Assembly (NCBI GenBank): GCA_029246285.1
Contig: JAQWNW010000043.1
Location: 1-64,000, forward strand
DNA from: Paracoccaceae bacterium
GTDB lineage: Bacteria > Pseudomonadota > Alphaproteobacteria > Rhodobacterales > Rhodobacteraceae
Reading direction: 5' to 3'
DNA length: 64,000 bases
Shown here: positions 40,271 to 42,012 of the stretch, piece by piece
Layout: each line of letters starts with the position of its first letter
Numbering within the stretch: position 1 is the first letter of the stretch
The notes under the pieces: generated by a model
Told to the model about the DNA's origin: nothing
Seen by the model: only the letters and a program-made list of their open reading frames with translations
Database searches by the model: none
Translations under genes and position numbers: made by a program

Positions 40271-40870
40271 TTAATTTTCTAGTGCTGTTACATGTTGATC
40301 AACGATATGTTGAACTCGTGGAGCATAATATGAAAATGGTGGTGTTTTCATTTCAGGATCTTTACCAGCATCATCAAAAAGTCGGACTTTTAAGATTTCA
40401 TTCAAATATGGTTTTTTTTCAAACTCGATTATCTCTTTTCTGTTCATTGGTCCTCCCTGAAGATGGAGTGAGTGAATAGAAGCTTTTGACAATCTGTTCA
40501 TGTATGACGGATCAGTCGCACATAAATATCTTTTTGCTGCAACATGAAACTGCACACAATCAGTTACTAATTTTGGAAAAAATCTTTTGAGTATTTCTGC
40601 TCCAGAGTTTTCATGAAACTTGTCTGAAGTGTCGGACATATTAAACATGCCAAATTCACTAGTAAAATGTCCTATATCGTGCAGTAATGTGGCAACAATC
40701 GTAATATCACTTTCCCCCTTTTGTTCCGCTAGTTTTGCACCTTGTAACATGTGTTGTGCCATAGTTACTGGTTCTCCTAGATACTCTTCATTTCCCCTGC
40801 GTTCAAAAAGGTCTTCAAGAAATGTGACTATGTTTTTTGAATTTAGTCTTAAAAAAATTGATTTTTTCAT
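40271..40870 (-). CDS. PhnZ/TmpB-like HD-domain mixed-valent diiron oxygenase
   Basis: A 199-residue HD-domain protein that tracks PhnZ closely. Tyr30 and Glu33 (YLGE), His40, His64, Asp65, His86, His109 and Asp166/167 fall at constant offsets (5-6) from PhnZ Tyr24, Glu27, His34, His58, Asp59, His80, His104 and Asp161. VAAKRYLC and ALQGGPM-like SLHLQGGPMNRKE also match. PhnZ-type enzymes use a diiron centre and oxygen to cleave the C-P bond of 1-hydroxyalkylphosphonates. With a BBOX-like partner upstream (14-base gap), TmpB is favoured; its product would be glycine betaine plus phosphate. Substrate preference needs assay. Confidence 0.82.
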   Translation of the reverse strand: MKKSIFLRLNSKNIVTFLEDLFERRGNEEYLGEPVTMAQHMLQGAKLAEQKGESDITIVATLLHDIGHFTSEFGMFNMSDTSDKFHENSGAEILKRFFPKLVTDCVQFHVAAKRYLCATDPSYMNRLSKASIHSLHLQGGPMNRKEIIEFEKKPYLNEILKVRLFDDAGKDPEMKTPPFSYYAPRVQHIVDQHVTALEN

Positions 40871-40884
40871 TTTATTAATTCATT

Positions 40885-42012
40885 TCAACTTTGAAATCTT
40901 AAAACATTTAATCTTGAGTAAAGAGCATCTTTATCCGCATAACAACCTTGAAGCCAACGTTTTCCAGACCCAGAATAGCCTTTCCTTGCATGTAGTACCC
41001 TTGTATTATCAACGATAAAGGACTCACCAGGCTCTAATCTGAAAGTTACTGCCATAGATTTATCATCAATTAATTCACCCATTCTCTGATAAGCGGCATA
41101 ATACAATTCCATTTTTTCAAACGGCACGTCAACAGTAGCTGCCGAAGAGCGATTGTTAAAACGTATGCCAATTAATTCACCATCTGGACCTAGTTCAATT
41201 AATGGTCTTTTTGATCGCAGAGCAGTTTGTCCAGTTCCAATATATTCAAATCTAGAGCAATATCTTGAAAGGATGTCAAAATATTCCATGTCTTCTGCTT
41301 GCAATCTTTGAGCTATTTTAAAACCGTCAACGACCATATTTTCCCCACCCTTTGCTGTACTTTCCAAGCAGTATAAGATCTGAATAGTAGGAACGGGATC
41401 TCTGTAGGGATTATCTGTATGAGCTTGTAAGCTTAAGCCTGTATAAGCTAAATTCGTCGGATTGACTTCGGTTCTTACCTCAAAATGTCGGCCGTAATTA
41501 GTTTCACGAACATAGCCAAATAATTTTACGATATCAAATAAGGCTTTGTCTTTAACAGGCCCATTTGATAATTTTGCAAAGCCAAAGCATTCGATAGCCT
41601 CAAGCCAATTCTTTAAGGAGGAGCTATTGCTTGTGATCTCATTAAAGTCTCCAGTTGGGATATTTCTCGTAAGCGTATTATCCCATCTTTCAATGTTTGA
41701 GGCAGTCCAACCCTTTGATAAATCTTTTTTATCGTCGTAAGAGTTTTTAAAAAGCCAATCGATATCATAAGAAATTTCTTTGTTTTCAGGTGAAAAGTAT
41801 ATTTTTAGTCTACTGTCGCTAATGGTCGCTGATTTTATATATGTGTCTTTGGGAATATCTTTGAGCGTTATTAATCTTTGACTGTTTTCAGGGGAGCGCG
41901 TTTTCTCATCCCAGGCATTATCTCTTAACCAAATCGCGTGTAATTTAGTGGAACGATTAGCATTCTTTAAGGTTAGGTAATTTCCAGTTTTATTTATATT
42001 TACACTAAGCAT
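40885..42012 (-). CDS. TmpA-like 2-oxoglutarate/Fe(II) dioxygenase (gamma-butyrobetaine hydroxylase type)
   Basis: A 375-residue TauD/BBOX fold enzyme. The N-terminal domain has [20 protein letters not shown], resembling gamma-butyrobetaine hydroxylase but lacking the zinc cysteines. Iron ligands are His and Asp in [11 protein letters not shown] near residue 196 and the distal His in RVLHARKG near 341. In TmpA the enzyme hydroxylates 2-trimethylaminoethylphosphonate at C1. The adjacent PhnZ-like gene argues for that role rather than carnitine synthesis. GGAAA precedes the ATG. Confidence 0.82.

What the first reader, a model, noticed from the sequence alone, without database searches (positions are those of the whole stretch)
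40271..42012. TmpA/TmpB-like oxygenase pair for organophosphonate use
A gamma-butyrobetaine-hydroxylase-like 2OG oxygenase is followed 14 bases later by an HD-domain oxygenase whose Tyr30/Glu33/His40/His64/Asp65/His86 line up with PhnZ Tyr24/Glu27/His34/His58/Asp59/His80. This is the gene pair of the two-enzyme route from 2-trimethylaminoethylphosphonate to glycine betaine plus phosphate. Annotation pipelines may call them carnitine-synthesis and generic HD phosphohydrolase genes. It suggests this organism scavenges phosphorus and betaine from phosphonates without a C-P lyase.
Basis: partly seen in the sequence, partly recalled or inferred. Interest (0 to 1): 0.75.

Follow-up and report, generated by a model that had tools for sequence, protein, structure and literature searches.

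The report
Two-enzyme phosphonate-to-betaine pathway (TmpA/TmpB)
A bacterium, probably marine, carries the already described pair of iron enzymes TmpA and TmpB, which together should turn a choline-like phosphonate into glycine betaine and phosphate; it is a good annotation but an ordinary new example of a known pathway.

Summary
On the minus strand a 375-aa 2-oxoglutarate oxygenase (40885-42012) is followed, after 14 bases, by a 199-aa HD-domain oxygenase (40271-40870). Both pass the NCBIfam equivalog cut-offs for TmpA (558.9 vs 400 bits) and TmpB (325.9 vs 300) and miss those of gamma-butyrobetaine dioxygenase (by 1.35 bits) and the PhnZ types. Best solved relatives: TmpA 6npb, TmpB 6npa. 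TmpB-paired oxygenases form one branch (100/100), apart from 8 BBOX-model matches without TmpB. No PhnJ was found in the 92%-complete genome. Trimethylamine monooxygenase, TMAO demethylase and betaine-type binding proteins fit a betaine product; phosphate control is unsupported. The reading is right but the system is known: TmpA passes its cut-off in 60 of 292 genomes of the order. A side finding may matter more: 18 related TmpA proteins with a changed phosphonate contact share one branch and one operon layout.

The parts
40885..42012 (-). tmpA: 2-trimethylaminoethylphosphonate hydroxylase (Fe(II)/2-oxoglutarate oxygenase), 375 aa; Fe ligands H198, D200, H341; 2OG R352; phosphonate contacts N187, N287, R288
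   Evidence: NF049936 558.9 bits, cut-off 400; PDB 6npb E 5.8e-150; residue columns; clade. Fe and 2OG roles are assigned from motif position
40271..40870 (-). tmpB: (R)-1-hydroxy-2-trimethylaminoethylphosphonate oxygenase (mixed-valent di-iron HD oxygenase), 199 aa; Y30xxE33 loop, ligands H40, H64, D65, H86, H109, D166
   Evidence: NF049941 325.9 bits, cut-off 300; PDB 6npa E 1.3e-82; residue columns
40871..40884 (-). 14-base spacer between tmpA and tmpB; 63 of 82 pairs elsewhere overlap by 4 bases, 10 overlap otherwise, 9 do not overlap (starts picked by script)
39984..40253 (-). 89-aa DUF3764 protein 17 bases downstream of tmpB; may be co-transcribed, role unknown, found only in this genus among the loci read
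   Evidence: PF12594 50.5 bits, cut-off 24; 66% identical copy in L033 (and in the G001 loci), the only other match being at E 0.25
42077..43081 (-). 3-hydroxyacyl-CoA-dehydrogenase-like gene (PRK08269 family) upstream on the same strand; accessory status uncertain
   Evidence: adjacent to the opine-DH-like gene but without tmpAB nearby in 7 of 7 genomes outside the genus
43062..44162 (-). octopine/opine-dehydrogenase-fold gene upstream; accessory status uncertain
   Evidence: PF02317 106.5 bits
44265..45500 (-). MFS transporter (MFS_4, YbfB-like); only a guess as an importer
   Evidence: PF06779 177.4 bits

Best explanation
The genes are tmpA and tmpB. TmpA, with Fe(II), 2-oxoglutarate and O2, hydroxylates C1 of 2-trimethylaminoethylphosphonate (TMAEP) to the (R)-1-hydroxy compound. 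TmpB then uses a mixed-valent di-iron centre and O2 to break the C-P bond, giving glycine betaine and phosphate. Shown here: the genes, their family membership, their catalytic and substrate residues, their pairing in every related locus examined, and the lack of a detected PhnJ. Inferred from the characterised Leisingera caerulea pair: the substrate and the reaction. Inferred from genome content: that the betaine (C and N) matters to this methylated-amine user at least as much as the phosphate.
For: TmpA and TmpB equivalog cut-offs passed, competing equivalog cut-offs missed. Best PDB matches are TmpB 6npa (E 1.3e-82, against 4e-30 for PhnZ) and TmpA 6npb (5.8e-150, against 3e-50 for BBOX). 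A tmpA match lies directly upstream of tmpB in 80 of 80 related loci (cut at or near a contig end in L062, L080, L110; L061 duplicates L058). TmpB-paired rows form one branch at 100/100. R288 is in 79 of 79 paired rows and 1 of 8 unpaired rows, and human BBOX has Ala there (alignment). N187/N287/R288 as the phosphonate contacts of TmpA: passages of PMC9296572. Reaction and YxxE loop: passages of PMC8177086 and PMC10574752. No PhnJ in G000, while 13 of the 41 genomes searched have it. TMA monooxygenase and TMAO demethylase, 3 strong OpuAC-type binding proteins, one of them with a stop codon inside the match, and 8 FAO_M oxidases in the same genome.
Against: No activity data for this pair. TIGR02409 (BBOX) misses its cut-off by only about 1 bit (413.4 vs 414.75), but a TmpB-paired TmpA in G037 exceeds that cut-off (433), so the model does not separate the two. 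No strong phosphonate-binding protein: the best PF12974 match in G000 is 49 bits (over the 27-bit cut-off, but relatives reach 158-212). The one Rieske oxygenase tested is not a betaine monooxygenase by its model (GbcA 143.3 vs 670), so the first step of betaine use is not identified. No Pho box above resampled sequence. The spacer is unusual for the family. The genome is a 92%-complete draft in 87 contigs.
Confidence: 0.93

Rival explanations
1. The 2OG enzyme is a true gamma-butyrobetaine hydroxylase for carnitine synthesis and the HD gene is an unrelated hydrolase.
For: TIGR02409 scores 413.4, just under its cut-off of 414.75; human BBOX is the second-best solved relative.
Against: Separate branch from 8 BBOX-model matches without TmpB; 24 columns in which at least 95% of the 79 paired rows share a residue that none of the 8 unpaired rows has, and R288 in 79 of 79 against 1 of 8; a tmpA match beside tmpB in 80 of 80 loci; TmpB cut-off passed.
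Confidence: 0.01
2. The pair is PhnY*/PhnZ-like and acts on 2-aminoethylphosphonate or methylphosphonate.
For: The same HD-oxygenase chemistry and motif as PhnZ.
Against: PhnZ1 model 141.8 bits against a cut-off of 300, Phn-HD 193 against 214.6; the partner is a BBOX/TmpA-type oxygenase with TmpA phosphonate contacts.
Confidence: 0.01
3. TmpA/TmpB here act on a related quaternary-ammonium phosphonate other than TMAEP, for example one supplied by the upstream dehydrogenases.
For: The opine-DH/hydroxyacyl-DH pair precedes tmpAB on the same strand in this genus. In the set of 61 relatives the opine-DH occurs in 4 genomes, all 4 among the 5 with TmpB over cut-off, two of the 4 being of the window's genus. 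In the set of 292, 4 of 7 opine-DH genomes have TmpA over cut-off against 60 of 292 (P = 0.035), and all 7 have some TmpA-model match at E 1e-60 or better, against 92 of 292.
Against: The pair is found without tmpAB nearby in 7 of 7 genomes outside the genus. Without the window's own genome the co-occurrence is 3 of 6 vs 59 of 291, P = 0.10, and two of the three are one genus. All three phosphonate-contact residues are unchanged.
Confidence: 0.05

Closest known systems
TmpA/TmpB of Leisingera caerulea (PDB 6npb/6npa; Rajakovich et al. 2019, seen only as a citation and as described in reviews)
   Same: Gene order, both enzyme families, Fe ligands, YxxE loop, N187/N287/R288
   Different: 14-base spacer, where most pairs read here overlap by 4 bases; other neighbours; no LysR among the ten neighbouring proteins scanned; small genome (2.27 Mb)
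PhnY*/PhnZ (aminoethylphosphonate)
   Same: 2OG hydroxylase plus HD di-iron oxygenase; the aligned active-site residues
   Different: Below the PhnZ-type cut-offs; the partner oxygenase is of TmpA/BBOX type
Gamma-butyrobetaine dioxygenase (BBOX)
   Same: Family, Fe/2OG site, quaternary-ammonium substrate
   Different: Human BBOX has Ala at the R288 column; BBOX-model matches without TmpB lie on a separate branch

Membership tests
TmpA (NF049936) | Curated equivalog score over cut-off | tested here: met
   558.9 vs 400 bits
TmpA (NF049936) | Phosphonate-contact residues N187, N287, R288 | tested here: met
   Present at the same numbers; roles from PMC9296572 passages
TmpA (NF049936) | Groups with TmpB-paired oxygenases and not with BBOX-like ones | tested here: met
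   80 rows one side of a 100/100 branch, 8 unpaired rows on the other; no experimentally proven BBOX was in the tree
TmpB (NF049941) | Curated equivalog score over cut-off | tested here: met
   325.9 vs 300 bits
TmpB (NF049941) | H...HD...H...H...D di-iron motif and YxxE loop | tested here: met
   H40, H64-D65, H86, H109, D166; Y30/E33
TmpA/TmpB pathway | Turnover of TMAEP to glycine betaine and phosphate | not testable with these tools
   Needs enzyme assay
BBOX (TIGR02409) | Curated equivalog score over cut-off | tested here: not met
   413.4 vs 414.75 bits, a near miss
PhnZ1-type hydroxymethylphosphonate dioxygenase (NF052439) | Curated equivalog score over cut-off | tested here: not met
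   141.8 vs 300 bits

The most novel reading that the evidence does not exclude
In this genus tmpAB has been joined to an opine-dehydrogenase/hydroxyacyl-dehydrogenase pair, an MFS carrier and a DUF3764 protein as one operon, extending the two-step route to a longer pathway for a more complex N-substituted phosphonate.
Probability: 0.06. Interest if true: 0.5.

Novelty: new member of a known kind. Interest (0 to 1): 0.27.

Why it matters
It assigns a TMAEP-to-betaine route to a small-genome lineage of Rhodobacteraceae type (so named in the record of its nearest relative, L033) in which no C-P lyase PhnJ was found, and links it to methylated-amine metabolism rather than clearly to phosphate starvation. 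The family-wide comparison also exposes a TmpA branch with an altered phosphonate contact and its own operon layout, a testable candidate for a new substrate.

Tried and rejected
True BBOX: rejected by tree, residues and pairing. PhnZ for aminoethylphosphonate: rejected by family scores. Pho-box control: best match scores upstream of tmpA in the 76 related loci with at least 200 bases of upstream sequence look like Markov-resampled sequence (9 loci at 10 or more of 14 positions, 8.3 expected); one locus, L037, reached 11 of 14, which 0 of its 40 resamples did; the window's own best is 8 of 14. The genome-wide pattern search gave 163 against 97 for the reversed control (its printed list stops before the window's contig), so some real boxes may exist. 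There was no proven positive-control promoter, so this is weak negative evidence. Sigma-70-like sites in 40000-45800 are at shuffle level, 19 against 19.7.

Opine-DH/hydroxyacyl-DH as pathway genes: adjacent to each other in 7 of 7 genomes outside the genus, with tmpAB in 0 of those 7 fetched stretches of 9-15 kb; co-occurrence is suggestive with the window's own genome (P = 0.035) and not without it (P = 0.10). DUF3764 as a third conserved component: found only in the same genus. Wider P genes: no PhnX over cut-off in 7 of 7 genomes, but none of the 14 control genomes passed it either, so that search had no positive control; PhnA, PhnW and PalA were not searched. The TmpB model matched once in G000, while weaker, probably PhnZ-like matches of 120-159 bits turned up in G009, G037, G040 and G060, so no PhnZ paralogue is seen. 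No structure prediction was run.

Rows dropped before counts: for the TmpA alignment and tree, window copies L004, L009, L114; G001 copies L011, L115 of L033; duplicates L061, L113; fragments L123, L062, L080, L110; one identical pair of rows (L008, L101) stayed in. The same duplicates, but not the fragments, were dropped for TmpB and for the spacer counts. The tree tool warned of long branches among the unpaired rows and of unusual letter make-up in the window row and three others.

Full report
WHAT IS THERE. On the minus strand lie a 375-aa oxygenase (40885-42012) and, 14 bases on, a 199-aa HD-domain protein (40271-40870). The Y24/Y30 and E27/E33 roles of the YxxE loop in PhnZ/TmpB are described in PMC8177086 (passages read).

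WHAT IT IS. NCBIfam names both proteins directly: TmpA NF049936 at 558.9 bits (cut-off 400) and TmpB NF049941 at 325.9 (cut-off 300). BBOX TIGR02409 (413.4 vs 414.75), Phn-HD TIGR03276 (193 vs 214.6) and PhnZ1 NF052439 (141.8 vs 300) are all missed. BBOX is a near miss, but a TmpB-paired TmpA in genome G037 passes the BBOX cut-off (433 bits), so that model does not separate the two kinds. Among solved structures the best matches are TmpB 6npa (E 1.3e-82; PhnZ 4e-30) and TmpA 6npb (5.8e-150; BBOX 3e-50).

A scan of genome contigs found 129 stretches coding for a relative of TmpB and kept the best 80; in 80 of 80 a tmpA match lies directly upstream (cut at or near a contig end in L062, L080 and L110; L061 duplicates L058). 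In a maximum-likelihood tree of 88 rows (window, 79 paired, 8 BBOX-model matches without TmpB), the 80 paired rows lie on one side of a 100/100 branch. Limits: the 8 unpaired rows score below the BBOX cut-off, none is a characterised BBOX, several have long branches, and the tool flagged the letter make-up of the window row. At residue level the window protein has N187, N287 and R288, the phosphonate contacts listed for TmpA in PMC9296572 (passages read). R288 is in 79 of 79 paired and 1 of 8 unpaired rows; human BBOX has alanine in that column (alignment). The di-iron ligands of TmpB are invariant in 82 of 82 paired rows; the loop tyrosine is present in 81 of 82.

MECHANISM. TmpA hydroxylates TMAEP and TmpB cleaves the C-P bond to give glycine betaine and phosphate. 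The chemistry is taken from passages of two reviews (PMC8177086, PMC10574752); the original paper is not held. Substrate and product for this pair are inferred.

PHYSIOLOGY. The genome (G000, 2.27 Mb, 92% complete, 87 contigs) has no PhnJ, while 13 of the 41 genomes in the same search have it. No PhnX passes its cut-off, though no control genome did either. The best phosphonate-binding-protein match is 49 bits, over its 27-bit cut-off but far below the 158-212 bits of several relatives. The genome does hold trimethylamine monooxygenase (796.6 vs 675 bits), TMAO demethylase (1204.7 vs 1100), three strong OpuAC-type binding proteins plus one marginal match (one of the three has a stop codon inside the match) and eight FAO_M-type oxidases. 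The one Rieske oxygenase tested misses the betaine monooxygenase cut-off (143.3 vs 670), so the first step of betaine use is open. Uptake of TMAEP by a betaine-type importer and use of the betaine for carbon and nitrogen is plausible (inference). No Pho-box excess over resampled sequence is seen upstream of tmpA in 76 loci. Among 79 distinct loci, many with short flanks, 36 have a LysR gene, at a median of 94 bases upstream of tmpA and divergent in 36 of 37 members. PMC9381506 notes that phosphonohydrolase expression can be phosphate-insensitive and likely LysR-mediated (passage). No LysR was among the ten proteins scanned around the window's pair.

ANNOTATION CLAIM. Of 7 plasmid-borne pairs, 4 oxygenases are labelled TauD/TfdA and 1 gamma-butyrobetaine dioxygenase, 5 partners are labelled HD domain-containing protein, and 2 pairs carry no label.

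NEIGHBOURS. The opine-DH and hydroxyacyl-DH genes upstream are a unit of their own: adjacent to each other in 7 of 7 genomes outside the genus, with tmpAB in none of those 7 fetched stretches. For a link: in the set of 61 relatives the opine-DH occurs in 4 genomes, all among the 5 with TmpB over cut-off, two of them of the window's genus; in the set of 292, 4 of 7 opine-DH genomes have TmpA over cut-off against 60 of 292 (P = 0.035), and all 7 have some TmpA-model match at E 1e-60 or better against 92 of 292. Against it: without the window's genome it is 3 of 6 vs 59 of 291 (P = 0.10), and two of the three are from one genus. A DUF3764 gene after tmpB occurs only in the same genus.

SIDE FINDING. 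Of 80 paired TmpA rows, 18 come from loci with a zinc-alcohol-dehydrogenase gene upstream and/or an enolase-superfamily gene downstream. All 18 have Ala (12) or Ser (6) in place of N287; 61 of the other 62 keep Asn (exception L079, Ser). The 18 form one branch (97/94), so this is a single lineage and not many independent events; some of the other loci have short flanks, so their neighbours are not fully known. One member scanned with both proteins (L046) still passes both Tmp cut-offs. It may be a substrate-shifted subfamily. The window protein is not in it.

DISTRIBUTION AND VERDICT. TmpA passes its cut-off in 60 of 292 genomes drawn from the order, and TmpB in 5 of 61 genomes searched, the window's own included. 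The pair is a new member of a known and fairly common pathway. In the three listings seen few phosphonate papers mention TmpA/TmpB; I make no claim beyond those searches.

Noticed in passing
L039, L046, L052, L056, L058, L066, L071, L075, L086, L090, L092-L095, L097, L103, L105, L108 (tmpA genes): TmpA branch in which phosphonate-contact N287 is Ala or Ser (18 of 18) and the genes sit with a zinc alcohol dehydrogenase and/or an enolase-superfamily gene; possible new substrate.
   Followed up: partly
window 42077-44162 (-); also L033, L192, L193, L197-L201: An opine-dehydrogenase-fold gene and a PRK08269 hydroxyacyl-CoA-dehydrogenase-like gene form a conserved two-gene unit of unknown substrate: the window, L033 and 7 genomes outside the genus.
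   Followed up: partly
window 39984-40253 (-): DUF3764 gene just after tmpB, 66% identical in the nearest relative L033 while TmpB is 89% and TmpA 97% identical by tblastn: fast evolving.
   Followed up: partly
L216 (G000:C10:1-13000): TMAO demethylase, betaine-type ABC importer, trimethylamine monooxygenase and a glutamate-synthase-like gene close together: methylated-amine catabolism in the same genome.
   Followed up: partly
NZ_CP108785.1 positions 874235-875808 (plasmid, Embleya sp. NBC_00888): A distant adjacent TmpA-like/TmpB-like pair in Embleya (38% and 46% identity), possibly with a different substrate.
   Followed up: no
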